Positions 1-64,000 of a DNA stretch of 64,000 nucleotides are shown piece by piece; positions within the stretch are counted from its first letter, which is position 1; the number at the start of each line of letters is the position of its first letter. The stretch is taken from positions 10,198,501 through 10,262,500 of the forward strand of contig NC_079881.1 in the NCBI RefSeq assembly GCF_029227915.1, read 5' to 3'. Position numbers and translations under genes: made by a program. The notes beneath the pieces were generated by a model that searched no databases, was not told the origin of the DNA, and saw only the letters and a program-made list of their open reading frames with translations. This stretch comes from Hydractinia symbiolongicarpus (taxonomy: Eukaryota; Cnidaria; Hydrozoa; Anthoathecata; Hydractiniidae).

Positions 1-42
1 TTAACACGCGCAAGGTCCCCGGTTCGAGCCCGGGCGGAATCA
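1..42 (+). tRNA. tRNA-Val(AAC), 5' cut by window edge
   Basis: U0. Only nt 32-73 are in the window. Confidence 0.85.
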
Positions 43-49
43 TTGATGT

Positions 50-71
50 TTCCGCGAAGCGAACCTCGGAA
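50..71 (+). other. Val-Gln linker hairpin (representative of every unit)
   Basis: The 40 nt linker between Val and Gln has TTCCG pairing with CGGAA, and an inner CGC-GAA-GCG. It has no run of four T, so it is not expected to end pol III transcription. Its role is unknown; it may be a processing spacer in a Val-Gln precursor. Confidence 0.5.
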
Positions 72-82
72 GAGCCTCTGTA

Positions 83-154
83 GGTTCCATGGTGTAATGG
101 TTAGCACTCAGGACTCTGAATCTTGGGATCCGAGTTCAAGTCTCGGTGGAACCT
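83..154 (+). tRNA. tRNA-Gln(CTG)
   Basis: U0. It has TTGGG instead of CTGCG after the anticodon arm; one pair becomes a G-U wobble. Confidence 0.9.
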
Positions 155-208
155 GTGCCGTTATTTGTGCCTCGGAAGCACCTATTGGGCGTTTGGAAGC
201 AACGGCAC
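155..208 (+). other. Conserved hairpin abutting the Gln 3' end (representative)
   Basis: GTGCCGTT directly after the Gln gene pairs perfectly with AACGGCAC 38 nt later. Inside is a second stem, GTGC/GCAC, closing a 7 nt loop CTCGGAA. The same element follows nearly every Gln in the array, at A+160 to A+213. It has no T-loop or B box, so it is not an ordinary tRNA. It could be a structured precursor trailer, a decayed tRNA-like sequence or a small RNA. Confidence 0.5.
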
Positions 209-216
209 TTCAAATA

Positions 217-220
217 TTTT
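217..220 (+). terminator. Pol III terminator for Val-Gln (representative)
   Basis: TTTT in AAATATTTTAG is the first run of four T downstream of both Val and Gln, 63 nt past the Gln 3' end. It recurs at about A+222 in most units. Confidence 0.6.
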
Positions 221-285
221 AGTCATTTGCAAGAAGACATTGTAATAACAACGTTCTTCTGAAATGCATCGGATTAGGGCACAGT

Positions 286-358
286 GCCTTGTTAGCGCAG
301 TAGGCAGCGCGTCAGTCTCATAATCTGAAGGTCGTGAGTTCGATCCTCACACAGGGCA
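286..358 (+). tRNA. tRNA-Met(CAT), elongator
   Basis: U0, consensus. The sequence is elongator type, not initiator type. Confidence 0.95.
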
Positions 359-359
359 A

Positions 360-373
360 GGCTTTTAAAAGCC
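360..373. terminator. Palindromic terminator GGCTTTTAAAAGCC (representative)
   Basis: This perfect 14 bp palindrome starts two bases after the Met gene and supplies TTTT on both strands. It would stop the Met transcript and also any minus-strand read-through from Val-CAC. It recurs at A+365 in almost all units. Confidence 0.75.
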
Positions 374-403
374 GCAGTGAATCAAATGTTTGACGCCTAT
401 TAC

Positions 404-407
404 AAAA
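404..407 (-). terminator. Pol III terminator for minus-strand Val-CAC (representative)
   Basis: AAAA on the + strand is TTTT on the minus strand, 16 nt beyond the Val-CAC 3' end. It recurs in almost every unit. Confidence 0.7.
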
Positions 408-422
408 CTAGCAACTCAACAA

Positions 423-495
423 TGATTCCGCCCGAGCTCGAACCGGGGACCTTGCGCGTGTGAAGCGCACGTGATAACCGCTACACTACGTTATC
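423..495 (-). tRNA. tRNA-Val(CAC)
   Basis: U0. The 5' acceptor has GATAACG, so one or two pairs are weakened. Confidence 0.8.
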
Positions 496-585
496 CAATG
501 AATTTTGGAACCTATGACGAAGGAAAGCAATACAAGGCTAAATAAGCTAGAAAAAAAGCAAAAACATGTCGCTTCTTAGTTGCCA
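496..585. other. Divergent spacer between Val-CAC(-) and next Val(+) (representative)
   Basis: About 90 bp of A-rich sequence forms the shared 5' flank of the two Val genes. I see no clear TATA element; transcription is expected to rely on the internal A and B boxes. Confidence 0.5.
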
Positions 586-604
586 GATTCCGTTGTGTAG
601 TGGT
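586..604 (+). pseudogene. tRNA-Val 5' stub
   Basis: U1. Only the first 19 nt remain before the inversion breakpoint. Confidence 0.75.
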
Positions 605-654
605 CGGATCGCATGATTCAGAGTCCTGAGTGCTAACCATTACACCATGGAACC
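605..654 (-). pseudogene. tRNA-Gln(CTG) fragment, inverted
   Basis: U1. Nt 1-50 are present; the T arm and 3' acceptor are missing. Confidence 0.8.
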
Positions 655-694
655 TACAGGGGCTCTTCCGAGGTTCGCTTCGCAGAAACATCAA

Positions 695-767
695 TGATTC
701 CGCCCGAGCTCGAACCGGGGACCTTGCGCGTGTAAAGCGCACGTGATAACAGCTACACTACGTAATC
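695..767 (-). tRNA. tRNA-Val(TAC), inverted
   Basis: U1. This is a full-length Val-TAC on the minus strand, where Val-CAC is normal. It has one acceptor mismatch (GATTACG). Confidence 0.75.
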
Positions 768-865
768 CAATGAATTTTAGAACCTATGACGAAGGAAAGC
801 AATACAAGGCTAAAATAGCTAGAGAAAAAAGCAAACACATGTCGCTTGTTAGTTGCCAGATTTCA

Positions 866-876
866 TAGTGTAGTGG
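866..876 (+). promoter_or_regulatory. Internal A box of tRNA-Val (representative)
   Basis: TAGTGTAGTGG fits the pol III A-box pattern TRGYNNARNNG. Confidence 0.8.
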
Positions 877-909
877 TTATCACGTGTGCTTTACACGCGC
901 AAGGTCCCC

Positions 910-920
910 GGTTCGAGCCC
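910..920 (+). promoter_or_regulatory. Internal B box of tRNA-Val (representative)
   Basis: GGTTCGAGCCC fits the pol III B-box pattern GGTTCGANNCC. Confidence 0.85.
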
Positions 921-971
921 GGGCGGAATCATTGATGTTTCCGCGAAGCGAACCTCGGAAGAGCCTCTGTA

Positions 972-1043
972 GGTTCCATGGTGTAATGGTTAGCACTCAG
1001 GACTCTGAATCTTGGGATCCGAGTTCAAGTCTCGGTGGAACCT
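972..1043 (+). tRNA. tRNA-Gln(CTG)
   Basis: U2. It has the TTGGG variant of U0. Confidence 0.9.
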
Positions 1044-2366: not shown

Positions 2367-3683
2367 ATGGAGAACTATAGACCTGTTAGCTTGCTTCCCT
2401 GTTTATCAAAGGTTTTTGAAAGAATTATTCTTAATCAAATGCACACTTTTATGCATGACAAACTCAGCCCTCATCTATCAGGCTTTAGAAAGGGTTATAA
2501 TACACAATATGCTCTCATTCGAATGATTGAACAATGGAAAAGCACACTTGATAATAAGGGTGTAGTTGGAGCAGTGCTAATGGACCTTTCAAAAGCTTTT
2601 AATACTATCAACCATGATTTGCTTATTGGAAAGCTGCATGCCTATGGTTTTTCTGAATCTTCTTTATTATTTATTCACTCATACTTGAAAAATCGTTTTC
2701 AGAGAACCAGAATAAATTCTTCTTTTAGCGAATGGCTTCCTCTTCAAGTTGGAGTTCCACAAGGATCAATCTTAGGACCTCCTTTCTTCAATTATTCTAT
2801 AAACGATTTATTCTGGTTCATTATTCAATCATCCCTTTGTAACTTTGCAGATGATAACACCTTATATGCTTGTGAAAATTCATTAGAAGATGTAAAACAA
2901 ACACTGCTTACTAATTTGGTCATAGTTAATAATTGGTTTTATGAAAATTACTTAGCAATAAATTTGAAAAAGTATCAATATATTGTATTAGGTCATCACG
3001 ATGAAAGTTTGATATTTAACCATTTGAAAATTGCGTGTAAATCGTCTGTAGTGCTTCTTGGTGTTACGATTGACTCGAGACTAAACTTTCATTCGCATGT
3101 CAAAAACATCTGTAATAAGGCTAGTAGGAAACTCAACGTGCTTCAAAGGATATCTTCCTTTTTGACACCCAAGATGAAGCGTTTTCTCTTCAATTCATTT
3201 ATTTTGTCTCAGTTTTCTTACTGTCCCTTAGTATGGATGTTTTGTGGAAAAGTTGCGAATAATCGAATCAATCGTATTCATGAACGTTGTCTAAGAATCA
3301 TACAGGACGATATAAATGGCAGTTACGATGAACTTTTATCTTTATGTAATGTTAAAAATATTCACATCATCAATTTACAGAATTTAATGAAAGAGGTTTA
3401 CAAATTTCTAAATGGATTGTCACCTCTATATATGAACGAGATATTTTCTGTTAGGGAAAACAAGTACAACCTTCGTTGCTTTAATTTGATCAGGCGACCA
3501 ACTTGTCGGACAACGTACTATGGCTTAAATACTTTATCAAATATTGCAGGGAAGCTATGGATATCTGTGCCTGACGCTACAAAGAATGCTCCTTCTCTCG
3601 AAGCCTTCCGTAGCTCAATAAAATTTTGGGAAGGTGATGCTTGCACCTGTAAAATATGCATGGATATACCATACATATTTTAA
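2367..3683 (+). CDS. LINE reverse transcriptase, C-terminal part of ORF2
   Basis: The frame gives 438 residues from an ATG partly formed at the insertion junction and stays open to TAA. It starts at the conserved ENYRPVSLLP block. Motif A is LMDLSKAFN, which keeps the first (catalytic) Asp but has Asn where family members usually have Asp. Motif B is GVPQGSILG, followed by an unusual PPFFNYS. Motif C is FADD at residues 160-163 counted from this ATG. The C-terminal region has the thumb-like RIHERCLRII block typical of CR1/L2-like elements. No endonuclease is present, so it is a truncated and probably immobile copy. The frame also reads back open into the Gln tRNA to 2268, which is chance. Confidence 0.85.
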   Translation: MENYRPVSLLPCLSKVFERIILNQMHTFMHDKLSPHLSGFRKGYNTQYALIRMIEQWKSTLDNKGVVGAVLMDLSKAFNTINHDLLIGKLHAYGFSESSLLFIHSYLKNRFQRTRINSSFSEWLPLQVGVPQGSILGPPFFNYSINDLFWFIIQSSLCNFADDNTLYACENSLEDVKQTLLTNLVIVNNWFYENYLAINLKKYQYIVLGHHDESLIFNHLKIACKSSVVLLGVTIDSRLNFHSHVKNICNKASRKLNVLQRISSFLTPKMKRFLFNSFILSQFSYCPLVWMFCGKVANNRINRIHERCLRIIQDDINGSYDELLSLCNVKNIHIINLQNLMKEVYKFLNGLSPLYMNEIFSVRENKYNLRCFNLIRRPTCRTTYYGLNTLSNIAGKLWISVPDATKNAPSLEAFRSSIKFWEGDACTCKICMDIPYIF

Positions 3684-3839
3684 CTTTACTTATTTATTTA
3701 TTTATTTTTCTTATTTTTTATCGCTGTTTGCCTTGTTTTACGTTTTGTTGTCGATTTAAATTAGTTATTTAAATACTATTGTATCTATCGACGTTAAATA
3801 AAGAGAAAATCAAAAAAATCAAAAAAAAATCAAAAAATC
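2369..3839 (+). mobile_element. 5'-truncated non-LTR (LINE) retrotransposon inserted in U4
   Basis: Foreign sequence interrupts the Gln-Met spacer between TTGTAAT and AATAACAACG. It begins at the start of the reverse transcriptase domain, so the 5' region and any endonuclease are missing. It has an AT-rich 3' UTR and a tail of TCAAAAAA-like repeats, as in CR1/L2-type elements. At most AAT is shared at the two ends, so no clear target-site duplication is visible. Confidence 0.88.
3803..3839 (+). repeat. A-rich 3' tail repeats of the LINE
   Basis: Several TCAAAAAA-type repeats of variable length end the element, the usual 3' end of CR1/L2-like LINEs. Confidence 0.7.
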
Positions 3840-4255: not shown

Positions 4256-4295
4256 TTGATGTTTCCGCGAAGCGAACCTCGGAAGAGCCTCTGTA

Positions 4296-4708: not shown

Positions 4709-4799
4709 CAATGAATTTTATAACCTATGACGAAGGAAAGCAATACAAGGCTAAAATAGCTAGAGAAAAAAGCAAAAACATGTCGCTTGTTAGTTGCCA

Positions 4800-4872
4800 G
4801 ATTCCGTAGTGTAGTGGTTATCACGTGCGCTTAACATGCGCAAGGTCCCCGGTTCGAGCCCGGGTGGAATCA
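4800..4872 (+). tRNA. tRNA-Val(AAC)
   Basis: U6. C38T changes the anticodon loop; the last acceptor pair is G-U. Confidence 0.88.
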
Positions 4873-4912
4873 TTGATGTTTCCGCGAAGCGAACCACGGA
4901 AGAGCCTCCGTA

Positions 4913-4984
4913 GGTTCCATGGTGTAATGGTTAGCACTCAGGGCTCTGACTCCTGCGATCCGAGTTCAAGTCTCGGTGGAACCT
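4913..4984 (+). tRNA. tRNA-Gln(CTG)
   Basis: U6. The loop is GGGCTCTGACTCC: G31-U39 wobble and A38C. Confidence 0.88.
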
Positions 4985-5115
4985 GTGCCGTTAGTTGTGC
5001 CTCGGAAGCACCTATTGGGCGTTTGGAAGCAACGGCACTTCAAATATTTTAGTCATTTGCAAGAAGACATTGTAATACCAACGTTCTTCTGAAATGCATC
5101 GGATTAGGGCACAGT

Positions 5116-5188
5116 GCCTTGTTAGCGCAGTAGGCAGCGCGTCAGTCTCATAATCTGAAGGTCGTGAGTTCGATCCTCACACAGGGCA
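5116..5188 (+). tRNA. tRNA-Met(CAT), elongator
   Basis: U6, consensus. Confidence 0.95.
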
Positions 5189-5252
5189 AGGCTTTTAAAA
5201 GCCGCAGTGAATCAAATGTTTGACGCCTATTACAAAACTAGCAACTCAACAA

Positions 5253-5325
5253 TGATTCCGCCCGGGCTTGAACCGGGGACATTGCGCGTGTGAAGCGCAC
5301 GTGATAACCGCTACACTACGGAATC
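5253..5325 (-). tRNA. tRNA-Val(CAC)
   Basis: U6. There is a T-loop change and a variable-loop change. Confidence 0.85.
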
Positions 5326-5416
5326 CAATGAATTTTGGAACCTATGACGAAGGAAAGCAATACAAGGCTAAAATAGCTAGAGAAAAAAGCAAAAACATGT
5401 CGCTTGTTAGTTGCCA

Positions 5417-6559: not shown

Positions 6560-6650
6560 CAATGAATTTTGGAACCGATGACAAAGGAAAGAAATACAAG
6601 GCTATAATAGCTAGAGAAAAAAGCAAAAACATGTCGCTTGTTAGTTGCCA

Positions 6651-6723
6651 GATTCCGTAGTGTAGTGGTTATCATGTGCGCTTAACACGCGCAAGGTCCC
6701 CGGTTCGAGTCCGGGCGGAAGAC
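6651..6723 (+). tRNA. tRNA-Val(AAC), chimeric 3' end
   Basis: U9. The last acceptor bases come from the GAAGACATT spacer because the Gln-bearing segment is deleted, so the terminal pairs fail. There is no Gln in this unit. Confidence 0.6.
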
Positions 6724-6769
6724 ATTATAATAACAACGTTCTTCTGAAATACATCGGATTAGGCACAGT

Positions 6770-6842
6770 GCCTTGTTAGCGCAGTAGGCAGCGCGTCAGT
6801 CTCATAATCTGAAGGTCGTGAGTTTGATCCTCAAACAGGGCA
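6770..6842 (+). tRNA. tRNA-Met(CAT), elongator
   Basis: U9. T-loop TTTGA and one broken T-stem pair. Confidence 0.78.
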
Positions 6843-6906
6843 AGGCTTTTAAAAGCCGCAGTGAATCAAATGTTTGACGCCTATTACAAAACTAGCAACT
6901 CAACAA

Positions 6907-6979
6907 TGATTCCGCCCGGGCTCGAACCGGGGACCTTGCGCGTGTGAAGCGCACGTGAGAACCGCTACACTACGGAATC
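6907..6979 (-). tRNA. tRNA-Val(CAC)
   Basis: U9. One D-arm change (GAGAACC). Confidence 0.88.
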
Positions 6980-7070
6980 CAATGAATTTTGTAACCTGTG
7001 ACGAAGGAAAGCAATACAAGGCTAAAATAGCTAGAGAAAAAAGCAAAAACATGTCGCTTGTTAGTTGTCA

Positions 7071-25597: not shown

Positions 25598-25688
25598 CAA
25601 TGAATTTTGGAACCGATGACGAAGGAAAGCAATACAAGGCTAAAATAGCTAGAGAAAAAAGCAAAAACATGTCGCTTGTTAGTTGCCA

Positions 25689-25761
25689 GATTCCGTAGTG
25701 TAGTGGTTATCACGTGCGATTAACACGCGCAAGGTCCCCGGTTCGAGCCCGGGCGGAATCA
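25689..25761 (+). tRNA. tRNA-Val(AAC)
   Basis: U41. C31A breaks the pair closing the anticodon loop. Confidence 0.82.
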
Positions 25762-25801
25762 TTGATGTTTCCGCGAAGCGAACCTCGGAAGAGCCTCTGT
25801 A

Positions 25802-25873
25802 GGTTCCATGGTGTAATGGTTAGCACTCAGGACTCTGAATCCTGCGATCCGAGTTCAAGTCTCGGTGGAACCT
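25802..25873 (+). tRNA. tRNA-Gln(CTG)
   Basis: U41, consensus. Confidence 0.95.
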
Positions 25874-26004
25874 GTGCCGTTAGTTGTGCCTCGGAAGCAC
25901 CTATTGGGCGTTTGAAAGCAACGGCACTTGAAATATTTTAGTCAATTGCAAGAAGACATTGTAATAACAACGTTCTTCTGAAATGCATCGAATTAGGGCA
26001 CAGT

Positions 26005-26077
26005 GCCTTGTTAGCGCAGTAGGCAGCGCGTCAGTCTCATAATCTGAAGGTCGTGAGTTCGATCCTCACACAGGGCA
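26005..26077 (+). tRNA. tRNA-Met(CAT), elongator
   Basis: U41, consensus. Confidence 0.95.
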
Positions 26078-26141
26078 AGGCTTTTAAAAGCCGCAGTGAA
26101 TCAAATGTTTGACGCCTATTACAAAACTAGCAACTCAACAA

Positions 26142-26214
26142 TGATTCCGCCCGGGCTCGAACCGGGGACCTTGCGCGTATGAAGCGCACGTGATAACCGC
26201 TACACTACGGAATC
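26142..26214 (-). tRNA. tRNA-Val body with CAT (Met) anticodon
   Basis: U41. The plus strand reads GCGTATGAAGCG where Val-CAC has GCGTGTGAAGCG, so the anticodon is CAT and would read AUG. The rest of the Val body is consensus. Confidence 0.85.
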
Positions 26215-26305
26215 CAATGAATTTTGGAACCTATGACGAAGGAAAGCAATACAAGGCTAAAATAGCTAGAGAAAAAAGCAAAAACATGTCGCTTGTTAGT
26301 TGCCA

Positions 26306-26378
26306 GATTCCGTAGTGTAGTGGTTATCACGTGCGCGTTACACGCGCAAGGTCCCCGGTTCGAGCCCGGGCGGAATCA
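26306..26378 (+). tRNA. tRNA-Val(TAC)
   Basis: U42. Anticodon loop nt 32 is G instead of T. Confidence 0.85.
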
Positions 26379-26418
26379 TTGATGTTTCCGCGAAGCGAAC
26401 CTCGGAAGAGCCTCTGTA

Positions 26419-26490
26419 GGTTCCATGGTGTAATGGTTAGCACTCAGGACTCTGAATCCTGCGATCCGTGTTCAAGTCTCGGTGGAACCT
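26419..26490 (+). tRNA. tRNA-Gln(CTG)
   Basis: U42. One T-stem mismatch (CCGTGTTC). Confidence 0.85.
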
Positions 26491-26621
26491 GTGCCGTTAG
26501 TTGTGCCTCGGAAGCACCTATTGGGCGTTTGGAAGCAACGGCACTTCAAATATTTTAGTCATTTGCAAGAAGACATTGTAATAACAACGTTCTTCTGAAA
26601 TGCATCGGATTAGGGCACAGT

Positions 26622-26694
26622 GCCTTGTTAGCGCAGTAGGCAGCGCGTCAGTCTCATAATCTGAAGGTCGTGAGTTCGATCCTCACACAGGGCA
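26622..26694 (+). tRNA. tRNA-Met(CAT), elongator
   Basis: U42, consensus. The terminator palindrome after it is altered (GGTTTTTAAAAGCC). Confidence 0.95.
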
Positions 26695-26758
26695 TGGTTT
26701 TTAAAAGCCGCAGTGAATCAAATGTTTGACGCCTATTACAAAACTAGCAACTCAACAA

Positions 26759-26831
26759 TGATTTCGCCCGGGCTCGAAACGGGGACCTTGCGCGTGTGAA
26801 GCGCACGTGATAACTGCTACACTACGGAATC
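26759..26831 (-). tRNA. tRNA-Val(CAC)
   Basis: U42. Acceptor, T-stem (CGAAACGG) and D-loop changes. Confidence 0.75.
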
Positions 26832-26922
26832 CAATGAATTTTGGAACCTATGACGAAGAAAAGCAATACAAGGCTAAAATAGCTAGAGATAAAAGCAAAA
26901 ACATGTCGCTTGTTAGTTGCCA

Positions 26923-26995
26923 GATTCCGTAGTGTAGTGGTTATCACGTACGCTTAACACGCGCAAGGTCCCCGGTTCGAGCCCGGGCGGAATCA
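26923..26995 (+). tRNA. tRNA-Val(AAC)
   Basis: U43. G28A breaks an anticodon-stem pair (CGTACGC). Confidence 0.82.
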
Positions 26996-27035
26996 TTGAT
27001 GTTTCCGCGAAGCGAACCTCGGAAGAGCCTCTGTA

Positions 27036-27107
27036 GGTTCCATGGTGTAATGGTTAGCACTCAGGACTCTGAATCCTGCGATCCGTGTTCAAGTCTCGGT
27101 GGAACCT
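27036..27107 (+). tRNA. tRNA-Gln(CTG)
   Basis: U43. T-stem mismatch as in U42. Confidence 0.85.
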
Positions 27108-27238
27108 GTGCCGTTAGTTGTGCCTCGGAAGCACCTATTGGGCGTTTGGAAGCAACGGCACGTCAAATATTTTAGTCATTTGCAAGAAAACATTGTAATA
27201 ACAACGTTTTTCTGAAATGAATCGGATTAGGGCACAGT

Positions 27239-27311
27239 GCCTTGTTAGCGCAGTAGGCAGCGCGTCAGTCTCATAATCTGAATGTCGTGAGTTCGATCCT
27301 CACACAGGGCA
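27239..27311 (+). tRNA. tRNA-Met(CAT), elongator
   Basis: U43. Variable-loop change. Confidence 0.92.
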
Positions 27312-27375
27312 AGGCTTTTAAAAGCCGCAGTGAATCAAATGTTTGACGCCTATTACAAAACTAGCAACTCAACAA

Positions 27376-27448
27376 TGATTCCGCCCGGGCTCGAACCGGG
27401 GACTTTGCGCGTGTGAAGCGCACGTGATAACTGCTACACTACGGAATC
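27376..27448 (-). tRNA. tRNA-Val(CAC)
   Basis: U43. Variable-loop and D-loop changes. Confidence 0.87.
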
Positions 27449-27539
27449 CAATGAATTTTGAAACCGATGACGAAAGAAAGCAATACAAGGCTATAATAGC
27501 TAGAGAAAAAAACAAAAACATGTCGCTTGTTAGTTGCCA

Positions 27540-27612
27540 GATTCCGTAGTGTAGTGGTTATCACGTGCGCTTAACACGCGCAAGGTCCCCGGTTCGAGCC
27601 CGGTCGGAATCA
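27540..27612 (+). tRNA. tRNA-Val(AAC)
   Basis: U44. G65T breaks one T-stem pair. Confidence 0.84.
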
Positions 27613-27652
27613 TTGATGTTTCCGCGAAGCAAACCTCGGAAGAGCCTCTGTA

Positions 27653-27724
27653 GGTTCCATGGTGTAATGGTTAGCACTCAGGACTCTGAATCCTGCGATC
27701 CGAGTTCAAGTCTCGGTGGAACCT
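27653..27724 (+). tRNA. tRNA-Gln(CTG)
   Basis: U44, consensus. Confidence 0.95.
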
Positions 27725-27855
27725 GTGCCGTTAGTTGTGCCTCGGAAGCACCTATTGGGCGTTTGGAAGCAACGGCACTTGAAATAATTTAGTCAATTGC
27801 AAGAAGACATTGCAATAACAACGTTCTTCTGAAATGCATCGGATTAGGGCACAGT

Positions 27856-27928
27856 GCCTTGTTAGCGCAGTAGGGAGCGCGTCAGTCTCATAATCTGAAG
27901 GTCGTGAGTTCGATCCTCACACAGGGCA
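27856..27928 (+). tRNA. tRNA-Met(CAT), elongator
   Basis: U44. D-loop C20G. Confidence 0.92.
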
Positions 27929-27992
27929 AGGCTTCTAAAAGCCGCAGTGAATCAAATGTTTGACGCCTATTACATAACTAGCAACTCAACAA

Positions 27993-28065
27993 TGATTCCG
28001 CCCGGGCTTGAACCGGGGACCTTGCGCGTATGAAGCGCACGTGATAACCGCTACACTACGGAATC
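27993..28065 (-). tRNA. tRNA-Val body with CAT (Met) anticodon
   Basis: U44. It has the same GTATGAAG change as U41, plus a T-loop change. Confidence 0.82.
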
Positions 28066-28156
28066 CAATGAATTTTGGAACCTATGACGAAGGAAAGCAA
28101 TACAAGGCTAAAATAGCTAGAGATAAAAGCAAAAACATGTCGCTTGTTAGTTGCCA

Positions 28157-28229
28157 GATTCCGTAGTGTAGTGGTTATCACGTGCGCTTTACACGCGCAA
28201 GGTCCCCGGTTCGAGCCCGGGCGGAATCA
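28157..28229 (+). tRNA. tRNA-Val(TAC)
   Basis: U45, consensus. Confidence 0.95.
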
Positions 28230-28269
28230 TGGATGTTTCCCCGAAGCGAACCTCGGAAGAGCCTCTGTA

Positions 28270-28341
28270 GGTTCCATGGTGTAATGGTTAGCACTCAGAA
28301 CTCTGAATCCTGCGATCGGAGTTCAAGTCTCGGTGGAACCT
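28270..28341 (+). tRNA. tRNA-Gln(CTG)
   Basis: U45. G30A anticodon-stem mismatch and a T-stem change. Confidence 0.75.
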
Positions 28342-28472
28342 GTGCCGTTATTTGTGCCTCGGAAGCACCTATTGGGCGTTTGGAAGCAACGGCACTTCAA
28401 ATATTTTAGTCATTTGCAAGAAAACATTGTAATAACAACGTTCTTCTGAAATGAATCGGATTAGGGCACAGT

Positions 28473-28545
28473 GCCTTGTTAGCGCAGTAGGCAGCGCGTC
28501 AGTCTCATAATCTGAATGTCGTGAGTTCGATCCTCACACAGGGCA
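28473..28545 (+). tRNA. tRNA-Met(CAT), elongator
   Basis: U45. Variable-loop change. Confidence 0.92.
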
Positions 28546-28609
28546 AGGCTTTTAAAAGCCGCAGTGAATCAAATGTTTGACGCCTATTACAAAACTAGCA
28601 ACTCAACAA

Positions 28610-28682
28610 TGATTCCGCCCGGGCTCGAACCGGGGACCTTGCGCGTGTGAAGCGCACGTGATAACTGCTACACTACGGAATC
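28610..28682 (-). tRNA. tRNA-Val(CAC)
   Basis: U45. D-loop change. Confidence 0.88.
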
Positions 28683-28773
28683 CAATGAATTTTGGAACCG
28701 ATGACGAAGGAAAGCAATACAAGGCTAAAATAGCTAGAGAAAAAAGCAAAAACATGTCGCTTGTTAGTTGCCA

Positions 28774-28846
28774 GATTCCGTAGTGTAGTGGTTATCACGT
28801 GCGATTAACACGCGCAAGGTCCCCGGTTCGAGCCCGGGCGGAATCA
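28774..28846 (+). tRNA. tRNA-Val(AAC)
   Basis: U46. C31A, as in U41. Confidence 0.82.
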
Positions 28847-28886
28847 TTGATGTTTCCGCGAAGCGAACCTCGGAAGAGCCTCTGTA

Positions 28887-28958
28887 GGTTCCATGGTGTA
28901 ATGGTTAGCACTCAGGACTCTGAATCCTGCGATCCGAGTTCAAGTCTTGGTGGAACCT
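28887..28958 (+). tRNA. tRNA-Gln(CTG)
   Basis: U46. One T-stem wobble. Confidence 0.9.
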
Positions 28959-29089
28959 GTGCCGTTAGTTGTGCCTCGGAAGCACCTATTGGGCGTTTGG
29001 AAGCAACGGCACTTGAAATATTTTAGTCAATTGCAAGAAGACATTGTAATAACAACGTTCTTCTGAAATGCATCGAATTAGGGCACAGT

Positions 29090-29162
29090 GCCTTGTTAGC
29101 GCAGTAGGCAGCGCGTCAGTCTCATAATCTGAAGGTCGTGAGTTCGATCCTCACACAGGGCA
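29090..29162 (+). tRNA. tRNA-Met(CAT), elongator
   Basis: U46, consensus. Confidence 0.95.
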
Positions 29163-29226
29163 AGGCTTTTAAAAGCCGCAGTGAATCAAATGTTTGACGC
29201 CTATTACAAAACTAGCAACTCAACAA

Positions 29227-29299
29227 TGATTCCGCCCGGGCTCGAACCGGGGACCTTGCGCGTATGAAGCGCACGTGATAACCGCTACACTACGGAATC
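29227..29299 (-). tRNA. tRNA-Val body with CAT (Met) anticodon
   Basis: U46. Duplicate of the U41 gene. Confidence 0.85.
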
Positions 29300-29390
29300 C
29301 AATGAATTTTGGAACCTATGACGAAGGAAAGCAATACAAGGCTAAAATAGCTAGAGAAAAAAGCAAAAACATGTCGCTTGTTAGTTGCCA

Positions 29391-29463
29391 GATTCCGTAG
29401 TGTAGTGGTTATCACGTGCGCGTTACACGCGCAAGGTCCCCGGTTCGAGCCCGGGCGGAATCA
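29391..29463 (+). tRNA. tRNA-Val(TAC)
   Basis: U47. T32G, as in U42. Confidence 0.85.
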
Positions 29464-29503
29464 TTGATGTTTCCGCGAAGCGAACCTCGGAAGAGCCTCT
29501 GTA

Positions 29504-29575
29504 GGTTCCATGGTGTAATGGTTAGCACTCAGGACTCTGAATCCTGCTATCCGTGTTCAAGTCTCGGTGGAACCT
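29504..29575 (+). tRNA. tRNA-Gln(CTG)
   Basis: U47. Variable-loop change and T-stem mismatch. Confidence 0.82.
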
Positions 29576-29706
29576 GTGCCGTTAGTTGTGCCTCGGAAGC
29601 ACCTATTGGGCGTTTGGAAGCAACGGCACTTCAAATATTTTAGTCATTTGCAAGAAGACATTGTAATAACAACGTTCTTCTGAAATGCATCGGATTAGGG
29701 CACAGT

Positions 29707-29779
29707 GCCTTGTTAGCGCAGTAGGCAGCGCGTCAGTCTCATAATCTGAAGGTCGTGAGTTCGATCCTCACACAGGGCA
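29707..29779 (+). tRNA. tRNA-Met(CAT), elongator
   Basis: U47, consensus. Confidence 0.95.
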
Positions 29780-29843
29780 TGGTTTTTAAAAGCCGCAGTG
29801 AATCAAATGTTTGACGCCTATTACAAAACTAGCAACTCAACAA

Positions 29844-29916
29844 TGATTTCGCCCGGGCTCGAAACGGGGACCTTGCGCGTGTGAAGCGCACGTGATAACT
29901 GCTACACTACGGAATC
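29844..29916 (-). tRNA. tRNA-Val(CAC)
   Basis: U47. It has the U42 changes. Confidence 0.75.
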
Positions 29917-30007
29917 CAATGAATTTTGGAACCTATGACGAAGAAAAGCAATACAAGGCTAAAATAGCTAGAGATAAAAGCAAAAACATGTCGCTTGTTA
30001 GTTGCCA

Positions 30008-30080
30008 GATTCCGTAGTGTAGTGGTTATCACGTACGCTTAACACGCGCAAGGTCCCCGGTTCGAGCCCGGGCGGAATCA
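30008..30080 (+). tRNA. tRNA-Val(AAC)
   Basis: U48. G28A, as in U43. Confidence 0.82.
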
Positions 30081-30120
30081 TTGATGTTTCCGCGAAGCGA
30101 ACCTCGGAAGAGCCTCTGTA

Positions 30121-30192
30121 GGTTCCATGGTGTAATGGTTAGCACTCAGGACTCTGAATCCTGCGATCCGTGTTCAAGTCTCGGTGGAACCT
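30121..30192 (+). tRNA. tRNA-Gln(CTG)
   Basis: U48. T-stem mismatch. Confidence 0.85.
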
Positions 30193-30323
30193 GTGCCGTT
30201 AGTTGTGCCTCGGAAGCACCTATTGGGCGTTTGGAAGCAACGGCACGTCAAATATTTTAGTCATTTGCAAGAAAACATTGTAATAACAACGTTTTTCTGA
30301 AATGAATCGGATTAGGGCACAGT

Positions 30324-30396
30324 GCCTTGTTAGCGCAGTAGGCAGCGCGTCAGTCTCATAATCTGAATGTCGTGAGTTCGATCCTCACACAGGGCA
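30324..30396 (+). tRNA. tRNA-Met(CAT), elongator
   Basis: U48. Variable-loop change. Confidence 0.92.
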
Positions 30397-30460
30397 AGGC
30401 TTTTAAAAGCCGCAGTGAATCAAATGTTTGACGCCTATTACAAAACTAGCAACTCAACAA

Positions 30461-30533
30461 TGATTCCGCCCGGGCTCGAACCGGGGACTTTGCGCGTGTG
30501 AAGCGCACGTGATAACTGCTACACTACGGAATC
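30461..30533 (-). tRNA. tRNA-Val(CAC)
   Basis: U48. It has the U43 changes. Confidence 0.87.
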
Positions 30534-30624
30534 CAATGAATTTTGAAACCGATGACGAAAGAAAGCAATACAAGGCTATAATAGCTAGAGAAAAAAACAA
30601 AAACATGTCGCTTGTTAGTTGCCA

Positions 30625-30697
30625 GATTCCATAGTGTAGTGGTTATCACGTGCGCTTAACACGCGCAAGGTCCCCGGTTCGAGCCCGGTCGGAATCA
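30625..30697 (+). tRNA. tRNA-Val(AAC)
   Basis: U49. G7A acceptor mismatch and G65T. Confidence 0.75.
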
Positions 30698-30737
30698 TTG
30701 ATGTTTCCGCGAAGCAAACCTCGGAAGAGCCTCTGTA

Positions 30738-30809
30738 GGTTCCATGGTGTAATGGTTAGCACTCAGGACTCTGAATCCTGCGATCCGAGTTCAAGTCTCG
30801 GTGGAACCT
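30738..30809 (+). tRNA. tRNA-Gln(CTG)
   Basis: U49, consensus. Confidence 0.95.
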
Positions 30810-30940
30810 GTGCCGTTAGTTGTGCCTCGGAAGCACCTATTGGGCGTTTGGAAGCAACGGCACTTGAAATAATTTAGTCAATTGCAAGAAGACATTGCAA
30901 TAACAACGTTCTTCTGAAATGCATCGGATTAGGGCACAGT

Positions 30941-31013
30941 GCCTTGTTAGCGCAGTAGGGAGCGCGTCAGTCTCATAATCTGAAGGTCGTGAGTTCGATC
31001 CTCACACAGGGCA
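30941..31013 (+). tRNA. tRNA-Met(CAT), elongator
   Basis: U49. C20G. Confidence 0.92.
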
Positions 31014-31077
31014 AGGCTTCTAAAAGCCGCAGTGAATCAAATGTTTGACGCCTATTACATAACTAGCAACTCAACAA

Positions 31078-31150
31078 TGATTCCGCCCGGGCTTGAACCG
31101 GGGACCTTGCGCGTATGAAGCGCACGTGATAACCGCTACACTACGGAATC
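31078..31150 (-). tRNA. tRNA-Val body with CAT (Met) anticodon
   Basis: U49. Duplicate of the U44 gene. Confidence 0.82.
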
Positions 31151-35946: not shown

Positions 35947-36010
35947 AGGCTTTTAAAAGCCGCAGTGAATCAAATGTTTGACGCCTATTAAAAAACTAGC
36001 CACTCAACAA

Positions 36011-36083
36011 TGATTCCGCCCGGGCTTGAACCGGGGACCTTTCGCGTGTGAAGCGCACGTGATAACCGCTACACTACGGAATC
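36011..36083 (-). tRNA. tRNA-Val(CAC)
   Basis: U57. Minor T-loop and stem changes. The inverted duplication begins exactly at its 5' end. Confidence 0.82.
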
Positions 36084-36174
36084 TGGCAACTAACAAGCGA
36101 CATGTTTGTGCTTTTATCTCTAGCTATTTTAGCCTTGTATTGCTTTCCGTCGTCATAGGTTCCAAAATTCATTG

Positions 36175-36247
36175 GATTCCGTAGTGTAGCAGTTATCACG
36201 TGCGCTTCACACGCGCAAGGTCCCCGTTTCGAGCCCGGGCGGAATCA
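36175..36247 (+). tRNA. tRNA-Val(CAC), inverted copy
   Basis: Left arm of the inverted duplication; counterpart of 37402-37474. It has the G53T T-stem mismatch. Confidence 0.8.
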
Positions 36248-36311
36248 TTGTTGAGTTGCTAGTTTTGTAATAGGCGTCAAACATTTGATTCACTGCGGCT
36301 TTTAAAAGCCT

Positions 36312-36384
36312 TGCCCTGTGTGAGGATCAAACTCACGACCTTCACATTATGAGACTGACGTGCTGCCTACTGCGCTAACAAGGC
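36312..36384 (-). tRNA. tRNA-Met(CAT), inverted copy
   Basis: Left arm; counterpart of 37265-37337, with the same C40G and T-loop TTTGA. Confidence 0.75.
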
Positions 36385-36515
36385 ACTGTGCCCTAATCCG
36401 GTGCATTTCAGAAGAACGTTGTTATTACAATGTCTTCTTGCAAATGACTAAAATATTTGAAGTGCCGTTGCTTCCAAACGCCCAATAGCTGCTTCCGAGG
36501 CACAAGTAAAGGCAC

Positions 36516-36587
36516 AGGTTCCACCGAGACTTGAACTCGGATCGCAGGATTCAGAGTCCTGAGTGCTAACCATTACACCATGGAACC
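36516..36587 (-). tRNA. tRNA-Gln(CTG), inverted copy
   Basis: Left arm; consensus. Confidence 0.93.
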
Positions 36588-36627
36588 TACAGAGGCTCTT
36601 CCGAGGTTCGCTTCGCGGAAACATCAA

Positions 36628-36700
36628 TGATTCCGCCCGGGCTCGAACCGGGGACCTTGCGCGTGTTAAGCGCACGTGATAACCACTACACTACGGAATC
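36628..36700 (-). tRNA. tRNA-Val(AAC), inverted copy
   Basis: Left arm; consensus Val-AAC on the minus strand. Confidence 0.93.
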
Positions 36701-36791
36701 TGGCAACTAACAAGCGACATGTTTTTGCTTTTTTCTCTAGCTATTTTAGCCTTGTATTGCTTTCCTTCGTCATAGGTTCCAAAATTCATTG

Positions 36792-36864
36792 GATTCCGTA
36801 GTCTAGCGGTTATCACGTGCGCTTCACACGCGCAAGGTCCGCGATTCGAGCCCGGGCGGAATCA
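36792..36864 (+). tRNA. tRNA-Val(CAC), in palindrome loop
   Basis: It is inverted relative to the array. The T arm reads CCGCGATTCG, which breaks two pairs, and the A box has one change. Confidence 0.65.
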
Positions 36865-36948
36865 TTGTTGAGTTGCTAGTTTTGTAAAGCAATACAAGGC
36901 TAAAATAGCTAGAGAAAAAAGCAAAAACATGTCGCTTGTTAGTTGCCA

Positions 36949-52848: not shown

Positions 52849-52888
52849 TTGACGTTTCAGCGAAGCGAACCTCGGAAGAGCCTCTGTA

Positions 52889-52960
52889 GGTTCCATGGTG
52901 TAATGGTTAGAACTCAGGACTCTAAATCCTGCGATCCGAGTTCAAGTCTCGGTGGAACCT
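52889..52960 (+). tRNA. tRNA-Gln body with CTA (amber) anticodon
   Basis: U84. G36A changes the anticodon CTG to CTA (52922-52924), which pairs with the UAG stop codon. Anticodon stem, T arm and acceptor are consensus. The D stem has one change (TTAGAAC for TTAGCAC). It is a candidate amber suppressor if expressed and charged. Confidence 0.87.
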
Positions 52961-53091
52961 GTGCCGTTATTTGTGCCTCGGAAGCACCTATTGGGCGTTT
53001 GGAAGCAACAGCACTTCAAATATTTTAGTCATTTGCAAGAAGACATTGTAATAACAACGTTCTTCTGAAATGCATCGGATTAGGGCACAGT

Positions 53092-61965: not shown

Positions 61966-62038
61966 GGTTCCGTAGTGTAGTGGTTATCACGTGCGCTTAA
62001 CACGCGCAAGGTCCCCGGTTCGTGCCCGGGCGGAATCA
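61966..62038 (+). tRNA. tRNA-Val(AAC)
   Basis: U99. Acceptor A2G wobble and T-loop TTCGTGC (A58T). Confidence 0.78.
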
Positions 62039-62078
62039 TTGATGTTTCCGCGAAGCGAACCTCGGAAGAGCCTCTGTA

Positions 62079-62150
62079 GGTTCCATGGTGTAATGGTTAG
62101 CACTCAGGACTCTGAATCCTGCGATCCGAGTTCAAGTCTCGGTGGAACCT
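62079..62150 (+). tRNA. tRNA-Gln(CTG)
   Basis: U99, consensus. Confidence 0.95.
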
Positions 62151-62281
62151 GTGCCGTTAGTTGTGCCTCGGAAGCACCTATTGGGCGTTTGGAAGCAACG
62201 GCACTTCACATATTTTAGTCATTTGCAAGAAGACATTGTAATAACAACGTTCTTCTGAAATGCATCGGATTAGGGCACAGT

Positions 62282-62354
62282 GCCTTGTTAGCGCAGTAGG
62301 CAGCGCGTCAGTCTCATAATCTGAAGGTCGTGAGTTCGATCCTCACACAGGGCA
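62282..62354 (+). tRNA. tRNA-Met(CAT), elongator
   Basis: U99, consensus. Confidence 0.95.
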
Positions 62355-62418
62355 AGGCTTTTAAAAGCCGCAGTGAATCAAATGTTTGACGCCTATTACA
62401 AAACTAGCAACTCAACAA

Positions 62419-62491
62419 TGATTTCGCCCGGGCTCGAACCGGGGACCTTGCGCGTGTGAAGCGCACGTGATAACCGCTACACTACGGAATC
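62419..62491 (-). tRNA. tRNA-Val(CAC)
   Basis: U99. One acceptor mismatch. Confidence 0.86.
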
Positions 62492-62581
62492 CAATGAATT
62501 TTGGAACCTATGACGAAGGAAAGCAATACAAGGCTAAAATAGCTAGAGAAAAAGCAAAAACATGTCGCTTGTTAGTTGCCA

Positions 62582-62654
62582 GATTCCGTAGTGTAGTGGT
62601 TATCACGTGCGCTTAACACGCGCAAGGTCCCCGGTTCGAGCCCGGGCGGAATCA
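62582..62654 (+). tRNA. tRNA-Val(AAC)
   Basis: U100, consensus. Confidence 0.95.
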
Positions 62655-62694
62655 TTGATGTTTCCGCGAAGCGAACCTCGGAAGAGCTTCTGTA

Positions 62695-62766
62695 GGTTCC
62701 ATGGTGTAATGGTTAGCACTCAGGACTCTGAATCCTGCGATCCGAGTTCAAGTCTCGATGGAACCT
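62695..62766 (+). tRNA. tRNA-Gln(CTG)
   Basis: U100. T-stem mismatch as in U98. Confidence 0.85.
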
Positions 62767-62897
62767 GTGCCGTTAGTTGTGCCTCGGAAGCACCTATTGG
62801 GCGTTTGGAAGCAACGGCACTTCAAATATTTTAGTCATTTGCAAGAAGACATTGTAATAAAAACGTTCTTCGGAAATGCATCGGATTAGGGCACAGT

Positions 62898-62970
62898 GCC
62901 TTGTTAGCGCAGTAGGCAGCGCGTCAGTCTCATAATCTGAAGGTCGTGAGTTCGATCCTCACACAGGGCA
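62898..62970 (+). tRNA. tRNA-Met(CAT), elongator
   Basis: U100, consensus. Confidence 0.95.
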
Positions 62971-63034
62971 AGGCTTTTAAAAGCCGCAGTGAATCAAATG
63001 TTTGACGCCTTTTACAAAACTAGCAACTCAACAA

Positions 63035-63107
63035 TGATTTCGCCCGGGCTCGAACCGGGGACCTTGCGCGTGTGAAGCGCACGTGATAACCGCTACACTA
63101 CGGAATC
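63035..63107 (-). tRNA. tRNA-Val(CAC)
   Basis: U100. One acceptor mismatch. Confidence 0.86.
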
Positions 63108-63198
63108 CAATGAATTTTGGAACCTATGACGAAGGAAAGCAATACAAGGCTAAAATAGCTAGAGAAAAAAGCAAAAACATGTCGCTTGTTAGTTGCCA

Positions 63199-63271
63199 GA
63201 TTCCGTAGTGTAGTGGTTATCACGTGCGCTTTACACGCGCAAGGTCCCCGGTTCGAGCCCGGGCGGAAACA
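63199..63271 (+). tRNA. tRNA-Val(TAC)
   Basis: U101. T71A acceptor mismatch. Confidence 0.85.
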
Positions 63272-63311
63272 TTGATGTTTCCGCGAAGCGAACCTCGGAA
63301 GAGCCTCTGTA

Positions 63312-63383
63312 GGTTCCATGGTGTAATGGTTAGCACTCAGGACTCTGAATCCTGCGATCCGAGTTCAAGTCTCGGTGGAACCT
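63312..63383 (+). tRNA. tRNA-Gln(CTG)
   Basis: U101, consensus. Confidence 0.95.
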
Positions 63384-63514
63384 GTGCCGTTAGTTGTGCC
63401 TCGGAAGCCCCTATTGGGCGTTTGGAAGCAACGGCACTTCAAATATTTTAGTCATTTGCAAGAAGACATTGTAATAACAACGTTCTTCTGAAATGCATCG
63501 GATTAGGGCACAGT

Positions 63515-63587
63515 GCCTTGTTAGCGCAGTAGGCAGCGCGTCAGTCTCATAATCTGAAGGTCGTGAGTTCGATCCTCACACAGGGCA
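63515..63587 (+). tRNA. tRNA-Met(CAT), elongator
   Basis: U101, consensus. Confidence 0.95.
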
Positions 63588-63651
63588 AGGCTTTTAAAAG
63601 CCGCAGTGAATCAAATGTTTGACGCCAATTACAAAACTAGCAACTTAACAA

Positions 63652-63724
63652 TGATTCCGCCCGGGCTCGAACCGGGGACCTTGCGCGTGTGAAGCGCACG
63701 TGATAACCGCTACACTACGGAATC
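63652..63724 (-). tRNA. tRNA-Val(CAC)
   Basis: U101, consensus. Confidence 0.95.
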
Positions 63725-63815
63725 CAATGAATTTTGGAACCTATGACAAAGGAAAGCAATACAAGGCTAAAATAGCTAGAGAAAAAAGCAAAAACATGTC
63801 GCTTGTTAGTTGCCA

Positions 63816-63888
63816 GATTCCGTAGTGTAGTTGTTATCACGTGCGCTTAACACGCGCAAGGTCCCCGGTTCGATCCCGGGCGGAATCA
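63816..63888 (+). tRNA. tRNA-Val(AAC)
   Basis: U102. D-loop G17T and a T-loop change. Confidence 0.88.
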
Positions 63889-63928
63889 TTGATGTTTCCG
63901 CGAAGCGAACCTCGGAAGAGCCTCTGTA

Positions 63929-64000
63929 GGTTCCATGGTGTAATGGTTAGCACTCAGGACTCTGAATCCTGCGATCCGAGTTCAAGTCTCGGTGGAACCT
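63929..64000 (+). tRNA. tRNA-Gln(CTG)
   Basis: U102, consensus. It ends exactly at the window edge; the array evidently continues. Confidence 0.95.

What the first reader, a model, noticed from the sequence alone, without database searches (positions are those of the whole stretch)
1..64000. tRNA genes organised as a satellite: four tRNA genes per 617 bp unit, about 100 units
Nearly the whole 64 kb is one tandem repeat whose unit encodes Val, Gln, Met and Val tRNAs, giving about 400 loci with only these three amino acids, and both edges are still inside the array. Tandem tRNA arrays are known (for example in Entamoeba), but an animal-type array of this exact composition is not one I recognise. 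Most copies keep intact folds and promoters, which suggests selection or strong homogenisation.
Basis: partly seen in the sequence, partly recalled or inferred. Interest (0 to 1): 0.9.

Follow-up and report, generated by a model that had tools for sequence, protein, structure and literature searches.

The report
Hydractinia's tandem array of tRNA genes
This stretch lies inside a roughly 700-kilobase tandem array of valine, glutamine and methionine tRNA genes on chromosome 7 of the colonial hydroid Hydractinia symbiolongicarpus, a kind of array already reported in this animal, and its gene copies vary about as freely as the DNA between them.

Summary
62,511 of 64,000 bases match one 617-bp unit with four tRNA genes, Val(+), Gln, Met, Val(-); ARAGORN finds 400 tRNA genes. 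The window lies on chromosome 7 of Hydractinia symbiolongicarpus: two scaffold lengths equal the published ones. The array spans about 707 kb, partly read and partly sampled. Tandem tRNA arrays for all 20 amino acids were already reported in this species (PMC11067881), so the kind is known. Within the array tRNA genes are as variable as spacers (pi ratio 1.02, 95% 0.77-1.34), allele spectra match, and stem changes break pairs at the chance rate (163 of 207; 161.9 expected). Yet the consensus is canonical: Gln is identical to a dispersed C12 gene, and Val differs from dispersed C1 genes in stems only by pair-preserving changes. Near-identical units are enriched within about 10 kb. So copies are exchanged locally, and selection on single Val or Gln copies is not visible; Met may be an exception. 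Transcription was not tested.

The parts
1..64000 (+). Part of a tDNA tandem array, 617-bp unit, about 101 unit lengths here; the whole array on C7 is about 707 kb
   Evidence: bounds
4786..5402 (+). Example of one complete unit
   Evidence: anchors at 4786 and 5403
4800..4872 (+). tRNA-Val (AAC in this unit; over 88 full units AAC 59, TAC 27, other 2)
4913..4984 (+). tRNA-Gln (CTG in 84 of 88 full units)
5116..5188 (+). tRNA-Met (CAT in 88 of 88 full units; elongator type by my reading); TTTT tract 4 nt after the gene kept in 86 of 88 units
5253..5325 (-). tRNA-Val (CAC in 84 of 88 full units, CAT in 4)
2369..3839 (+). Retrotransposon fragment (reverse transcriptase domain, A-rich tail; by my reading a 5'-truncated non-LTR element) inserted in the Gln-Met spacer
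   Evidence: (RVT_1, E 3.3e-29)
604..767 (-). Inverted piece; its right junction lies within the Val/Val inverted homology
36008..36887 (-). Inverted segment of more than one unit; left junction within the 76-bp Val/Val inverted homology, right junction at a short overlap
6637..7056 (+). Shortened 420-bp unit; the same junction (unit positions 84 to 278) recurs at about 11457 and 14334, so one deletion probably spread by block duplication
25675..31227 (+). Five-unit lag: four consecutive unit pairs (25675/28760, 26292/29377, 26909/29994, 27526/30611) differ at 2, 1, 0 and 1 sites
26142..26214 (-). Val-backbone tRNA with CAT anticodon; the same type at 27993, 29227 and 31078
52888..52961 (+). 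Gln-backbone tRNA with CTA (amber-reading) anticodon; another at 54073

Best explanation
The window is part of a ~707-kb tDNA array on chromosome 7 of Hydractinia symbiolongicarpus. Each 617-bp unit carries Val, Gln, elongator-type Met and Val genes. The array most likely supplies these tRNAs in bulk, rDNA-fashion (inferred). Units arise and are replaced by local unequal exchange and multi-unit block duplication (inferred from the pattern of near-identical units, which is shown). With about a thousand copies of each gene, the loss of one copy should cost almost nothing (inferred), and mutations in the Val and Gln genes do spread within the array as easily as spacer mutations (shown). The consensus has stayed canonical, either because selection acts on the total number of working copies or because the array grew recently from working genes (inferred, not separated here). 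At least some other isoacceptors sit in other arrays: Gln-TTG with Ser and Lys on C14; Asp, Lys, Ala, initiator-type Met and others on C3.
For: Species: C7 length 33,314,500 and C1 length 42,572,105 equal the published N50 (L50 = 7) and longest scaffold of HSymV2.0 (PMC10411563 Table 2). Arrays in this species: PMC11067881 section 14. Extent. The exact Val 3' 31-mer occurs 711+476 times genome-wide, reversed control 0; 57+44 in the window, so scaling by array length predicts about 629+486 and the C7 array can account for most of them. A Val 5' 24-mer occurs 824+22 times against 75+5 in the window, 828+55 predicted. Neutrality: pi 0.0336 tRNA, 0.0329 spacer; ratio 1.02 (0.77-1.34) in the window, 1.14 (0.85-1.52) there without Met, 1.14 (0.87-1.50) in 218 further units without Met; spectra chi2 p 0.97 and 0.92; stem and loop alleles 1.26 and 1.26 per site; pair-breaking 163 of 207, 161.9 expected. 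Local exchange: share of unit pairs with 3 or fewer differences is 0.016-0.034 below 5 kb, 0.008 at 5-10 kb, 0.003 at 10-50 kb, 0.000 above 50 kb. Constraint on consensus: Gln 73 of 73 bp identical to a dispersed C12 copy whose flanks do not match the unit; Val differs from dispersed C1 genes in stems only at 2/71, 28/42 and 5, all keeping pairs (0 of 5 against 163 of 207, p 0.0006, or 0 of 3 as independent events, p 0.011). Gln-TTG: 258 genome matches; of the first 100 listed, in contig order, 5 are on C7 and 91 on C14.
Against: No RNA data: transcription is inferred from intact cloverleaves and internal promoter regions only. In the consensus Val(+) has no TTTT before the Gln gene (first at 174 nt) and Gln's first is at 62 nt; the TTTT tracts are not specially conserved in the window (Met 86, Val(-) 80, Gln 69 of 88, against a mean of 0.93 for any 4-mer). 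Dispersed Val-CAC, Val-TAC and Gln-CTG genes exist, so the array is not the only source of these. Signs of constraint: Met has pi 0.022 and 13 alleles in 42 stem sites against 19 in 31 loop sites (p 0.016), though the neighbouring spacer is as low (0.0205); Val(+) A box varies less than the rest of the gene (0.009 against 0.027), as does Met's (0.006 against 0.010), but those of Val(-) and Gln do not. The genome counts include an excess of forward 31-mer matches over the prediction (711 against 629) that I did not place.
Confidence: 0.75

Rival explanations
1. Inert satellite. A small tRNA cluster was amplified by unequal exchange and is silent or nearly so; the dispersed genes on C1 and C12 do the work.
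For: Per-copy neutrality; dispersed Val-CAC, Val-TAC and Gln-CTG genes exist; anticodon mutants such as Val-CAT (4 of 88) and Gln-CTA (5 of 306) persist, and the Val-CAT ones lie in a duplicated block; CpG positions carry more C>T or G>A alleles than other C/G positions (44 of 82 against 83 of 218, p 0.018), as methylation would cause; a tandem Ser/Tyr tDNA cluster in Arabidopsis is silenced in most tissues (PMC12308677 abstract).
Against: No dispersed Val-AAC gene appeared among the 5 dispersed Val matches listed, all on C1; the list was cut off within C7, so later contigs are unseen. CpG observed/expected in the unit is 1.13, and 1.01 in its spacers, against 0.53 and 0.65 in two stretches beyond the right edge, which argues mildly against long heavy methylation. 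Most Gln, Met and Val(+) copies have no broken pair.
Confidence: 0.2
2. Each copy is held intact by purifying selection.
For: More than half of Val(+), Gln and Met copies have no broken pair; Met is less variable than the other genes.
Against: Diversity, allele spectra, stem/loop ratio and pair-breaking rate over all four genes together are those of spacer or chance.
Confidence: 0.03
3. Assembly artefact: repeated units multiplied by the assembler.
For: HiFi read N50 13.2 kb is far shorter than the array (PMC10411563), so total length could be wrong.
Against: Units differ by 21 sites on average, so each HiFi read should have its own pattern; the window has no N; PMC11067881 reports tRNA arrays in both Hydractinia genomes and in a differently made H. 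echinata draft.
Confidence: 0.02

Closest known systems
Hydractinia ncRNA tandem arrays (PMC11067881, 2024)
   Same: Same species; evenly spaced tens to hundreds of near-identical tRNA copies with near-identical spacers; tRNAs for all 20 amino acids
   Different: In what I read (section 14 whole, other tRNA passages) the main text gives no unit of this composition, no array of this length and no variation test; its supplementary tables could not be opened here
Entamoeba tRNA gene arrays (PMC2652664, abstract and first part of discussion)
   Same: Tandem units of up to 5 tRNA genes; random spread of variants by concerted evolution was proposed there
   Different: E. histolytica and E. dispar have short tandem repeats between genes, and almost all E. 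histolytica tRNA genes are in arrays; here no such repeats were found, and dispersed tRNA genes exist
Human 1q23.3 tRNA VNTR (PMC4041453, abstract and outline)
   Same: Animal tandem repeat with tRNA genes in each unit
   Different: 7.3-kb units, 9-43 copies, CTCF site; tRNA genes under 6% of the unit, here 295 of 617 bp
Nematostella and teleost tDNA clusters (PMC2888827, abstract and passages)
   Same: Very large tRNA gene clusters in animals; Nematostella has over 17,000 tRNA genes and pseudogenes, 89% in clusters
   Different: Unit structure and variation within arrays not described in the passages read
Xenopus laevis tDNA repeats (recalled, no call confirmed it)
   Same: Several different tRNA genes per tandem unit in an animal
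   Different: Recalled unit about 3 kb with other genes; searches did not return the original work

Membership tests
Hydractinia tRNA tandem arrays (PMC11067881) | Located in a Hydractinia genome | tested here: met
   Two scaffold lengths identical to HSymV2.0
Hydractinia tRNA tandem arrays (PMC11067881) | Evenly spaced, near-identical copies and spacers, tens to hundreds | tested here: met
   70 of 98 spacings exactly 617; mean 21 differences per unit pair
Hydractinia tRNA tandem arrays (PMC11067881) | This array listed in the paper's tables | not testable with these tools
Entamoeba-type tRNA arrays | Tandem unit with several tRNA genes | tested here: met
   Four genes per unit
Entamoeba-type tRNA arrays | Nearly all tRNA genes in arrays | tested here: inconclusive
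   Small dispersed groups on C1, C11, C12 exist; no full census possible
Entamoeba-type tRNA arrays | Short tandem repeats between genes (E. histolytica, E. dispar only) | tested here: not met
   Of 5 TRF rows in the window the only short-period one lies in the retrotransposon tail
Satellite-like tandem DNA | Long head-to-tail array with local homogenisation and no visible per-copy constraint | tested here: met
   Met a possible exception
tRNA-derived SINE | Dispersed insertions of a tRNA head with a tail and target duplications | tested here: not met
   The sequence is a head-to-tail array of bare tRNA genes with fixed spacing
tRNA pseudogene array | Most copies fail covariance scoring | tested here: not met
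   In 4150-12000 all 51 ARAGORN genes match the Rfam model at 43 bits or more, cut-off 29; elsewhere only fast-filter counts; tRNAscan-SE not available
Functional tDNA array | Copies are transcribed by Pol III | not tested
   No RNA data held

The most novel reading that the evidence does not exclude
Hydractinia runs much of its tRNA supply like rDNA: large arrays that divide isoacceptors among them (Gln-CTG on C7, Gln-TTG on C14), in which selection acts only on the array total. Individual copies drift neutrally, including ones with missense or amber-reading anticodons, and an anticodon variant (Val A34 to T, 116 of 306 units) has drifted to high frequency. Such arrays would be a natural reservoir of variant tRNAs.
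Probability: 0.35. Interest if true: 0.6.

Novelty: already known. Interest (0 to 1): 0.4.

Why it matters
Tandem tRNA arrays were known in this animal, with their significance called unclear. An array of about a thousand units, read unit by unit, lets one ask whether selection sees single tRNA genes. In 306 units there is no sign that it does for Val and Gln, while the consensus stays canonical. That makes the mutation load, and the tolerance of anticodon-mutant tRNAs, directly measurable by tRNA sequencing.

Tried and rejected
Pseudogene array: rejected for the stretch tested, since the Rfam shortfall there (39) vanished with laxer filters (52 tRNA matches, covering all 51 ARAGORN genes); the whole-window count of 301 was not rerun. 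SINE origin: rejected by fixed head-to-tail spacing. Odd ARAGORN anticodons (Leu-taa, SeC-tca): read as parsing offsets (anticodon at position 33). Plant miRNA family matches (RF04128, RF04143; 6 rows) lie far below their cut-offs and sit on the Val/Val inverted pair: rejected. Gene conversion between Val(+) and Val(-): 67 shared alleles, 59.9 expected, no clear excess. The retrotransposon's relatives (best hit 51% identical) carried no organism names and did not help identify the species. The second array (C3, 13 units) gave pi 0.0119 tRNA and 0.0133 spacer, a small sample; there ARAGORN missed what I read as an intron-bearing Leu gene, which was counted as spacer. Copy-frequency measures go both ways: Val(+) stems 0.017 and loops 0.028, Val(-) stems 0.028 and loops 0.015, Gln 0.019 and 0.019.

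Papers: searches were answered (27 with no paper; 78 failed). None of the listings they gave showed, by title or abstract, a test of per-copy selection in a tRNA array; that is not proof that none exists. PMC13119343 (Podocoryna genome) was seen in passages only: it has no occurrence of 'tandem'.

Rows dropped before counts: 10 of 98 window units with lengths outside 610-622. Of the 262 anchor-to-anchor intervals in the 18 fetched array stretches (L009-L026), 218 of 610-622 bp were used. Met was left out of the fetched-unit test because 42% of its letters there are masked.
Full report
WHAT IS THERE. The window is one tandem array. ARAGORN finds 400 tRNA genes: 191 Val, 102 Met, 96 Gln and 11 others. 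An 18-base anchor finds 99 unit starts, and 70 of 98 spacings are exactly 617 bp. 62,511 of 64,000 bases match the 617-bp consensus; the one long gap, 2369-3839, is a retrotransposon fragment. The consensus, from the 88 of 98 units with lengths of 610-622 bp, holds Val(+) at unit positions 15-87, Gln at 127-200, Met at 330-404 and Val(-) at 468-540.

WHERE IT IS. The genome search places the window at C7:10,198,501-10,262,500 of a 480,894,487-base assembly. C7 is 33,314,500 bases long and C1 is 42,572,105. The published Hydractinia symbiolongicarpus assembly HSymV2.0 has N50 33,314,500 with L50 7, and a longest scaffold of 42,572,105 (PMC10411563 Table 2, passages). I take the identification as settled, although the held copy has 76 contigs and the published one 84 sequences.

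HOW BIG IT IS. The first Val match on C7 is at 9,678,469; sampled 700-base stretches from 9,598,501 to 9,677,200 show no unit, and the 1.3 kb between was not read. On the right the unit match stops about 10,385,042 (L050). That is about 707 kb, or 1,145 unit lengths; at the window's density, roughly 4,400 tRNA genes (an estimate). All 18 ten-kilobase stretches read between 9,998,501 and 10,362,500 hold the array, though one of them is more than half masked and another has about 1.2 kb that does not match. The rest was only sampled (12 of 12 sampled 700-base stretches inside the bounds match), so smaller interruptions are possible. An exact 31-mer from the Val 3' half occurs 711+476 times in the genome with a reversed control of 0; the first 100 places listed are all on C7. 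The window holds 57+44, so the C7 array predicts about 629+486. A Val 5' 24-mer occurs 824+22 times, 828+55 predicted from 75+5 in the window.

INTACT OR DEAD. With Rfam's fast filters 301 matches reach the cut-off in the window and 39 in 4150-12000. With laxer filters that stretch gives 52 tRNA matches of at least 43 bits, cut-off 29, covering all 51 ARAGORN genes there. Copies with no broken stem pair: Val(+) 196 of 306, Gln 193 of 306, Val(-) 141 of 306, Met 69 of 88.

SELECTION OR HOMOGENISATION. In the window pi is 0.0336 in tRNA genes and 0.0329 in spacers; the ratio is 1.02 (bootstrap 0.77-1.34), or 1.14 (0.85-1.52) without Met. In 218 further units, Met left out, it is 1.14 (0.87-1.50). 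Allele spectra (single, 2-4, 5 or more copies) do not differ (p 0.97 in the window, 0.92 over all units). Stem and loop sites carry 1.26 alleles each, and 163 of 207 stem alleles break a pair where 161.9 are expected. So single copies are not visibly protected. Against this: Met has pi 0.022 and fewer stem than loop alleles (13 in 42 sites, 19 in 31; p 0.016), but its neighbouring spacer is just as low (0.0205), so this may be a regional effect. The A box varies less than the rest of the gene in Val(+) and Met but not in Val(-) and Gln.

Homogenisation is local. Pairs of units with three or fewer differences make up 1.6-3.4% of pairs below 5 kb, 0.8% at 5-10 kb, 0.3% at 10-50 kb and 0.0% above 50 kb. 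Block duplications are plain: four consecutive units from 25675 recur five units later with 0-2 differences, and one deletion junction recurs at three places. Toward the right end 617-bp units are mixed with 579-580-bp ones, often in turn, and the shorter ones lack a detectable Val(+).

CONSTRAINT AT THE CONSENSUS. Dispersed genes outside the array give a yardstick. A Gln-CTG gene on C12, whose flanks do not match the unit, matches the array consensus at 73 of 73 bases. Dispersed Val-CAC (two) and Val-TAC (three) genes on C1 differ from the array consensus in stems only at 2/71, 28/42 and 5, all keeping pairs, besides positions 16 and 34. Zero of 5 breaking, against 163 of 207 within the array, gives p 0.0006; counted as three events, 0.011. 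This comparison is small. The array's TAC copies mostly do not carry the dispersed TAC gene's other bases (2 of 116 have one of the two looked at), so they look like a point change A34 to T inside Val-AAC that rose to 116 of 306 units.

DIVISION OF LABOUR. Gln-TTG is nearly absent from C7: a Gln-TTG pattern has 258 matches, of which the first 100 are listed in contig order, with 5 on C7, 2 each on C11 and C12, and 91 on C14, where one 3-kb stretch shows it together with Ser-GCT and Lys-CTT. A C3 array repeats Asp, Lys, Ala, initiator-type Met and others every 1.3 kb. Anticodon mutants occur: Val-CAT in 4 of 88 window units and 1 of 218 others, Gln-CTA in 1 of 88 and 4 of 218.

TRANSCRIPTION SIGNALS. 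TTTT tracts lie 4 nt after Met (kept in 86 of 88 window units, 191 of 218 others) and 15 nt after Val(-) (80 of 88, 204 of 218). Val(+) has none before Gln, and Gln's first is at 62 nt (69 of 88, 210 of 218). A random 4-mer of the unit is intact in 93% of window units, so only Met's tract is above that in the window. Val(+) and Gln may be made as one transcript; this is inference. CpG observed/expected is 1.13 in the unit and 1.01 in its spacers, 0.53 and 0.65 in two stretches beyond the right edge, which speaks mildly against long silencing by methylation; but CpG positions do carry more C>T or G>A alleles than other C/G positions (44 of 82 against 83 of 218, p 0.018).

WHAT IS KNOWN. PMC11067881 (section 14 read in full; other passages) reports tandem arrays of tRNAs for all 20 amino acids in both Hydractinia genomes, and tRNA arrays in Nematostella, with significance 'unclear'. 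Its supplementary tables were not readable here. PMC2888827 (abstract and passages) reports over 17,000 tRNA genes and pseudogenes in Nematostella, 89% clustered. PMC2652664 (abstract and first part of the discussion) describes Entamoeba arrays and proposes random spread of variants by concerted evolution. PMC4041453 and PMC12308677 were seen as abstracts and outlines. The kind of object is therefore already known; the variation analysis, the extent and the unit composition are what this report adds to what I could read.

VERDICT. A real, very large tDNA array of a published kind in its published species. Copies evolve like a satellite; the consensus stays a canonical set of tRNAs. Whether the array is used or inert is the open question, and tRNA sequencing would settle it.

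Noticed in passing
window 2369-3839: Retrotransposon fragment with reverse transcriptase domain and A-rich tail, inserted in the Gln-Met spacer; best protein relatives about 50% identical.
   Followed up: partly
window 604-767 and 36008-36887: Two inverted pieces, each with one junction inside the 76-bp inverted homology between the Val(+) and Val(-) genes, as if that pair promotes inversions.
   Followed up: partly
L024-L026 (G000 C7, between 10,312,501 and 10,362,500): Toward the right end, 617-bp and 580-bp units are mixed and often alternate, the shorter lacking a detectable Val(+): possibly a young two-unit higher-order repeat.
   Followed up: partly
unit positions 200-254 (Gln-Met spacer): Sequence after Gln can fold into a hairpin (-22.7 kcal/mol, z -2.65); meaning unknown.
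   Followed up: no
L062 (G000 C14:7,621,001-7,624,000) and matches from C14:7,288,958 on: A separate, less regular array of Ser-GCT, Gln-TTG and Lys-CTT genes.
   Followed up: partly
L001, L003, L004, L055, L056 (G000 C3, 3.35-8.96 Mb): Blocks of a 1.3-kb unit with Asp, Lys, Ala, Ala, initiator-type Met and what I read as intron-bearing Tyr and Leu genes (ARAGORN calls one of them Leu-tag and misses the other).
   Followed up: partly
window, Val(-)/Val(+) head-to-head pairs: The pair forms a long inverted repeat that weakly matches plant miRNA families RF04128 and RF04143, far below their cut-offs.
   Followed up: no
whole assembly G000: The tRNA family search had 49,105 first-look candidates, of which only 63 were scored: a loose hint at very many tRNA-like loci, not a count.
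   Followed up: no
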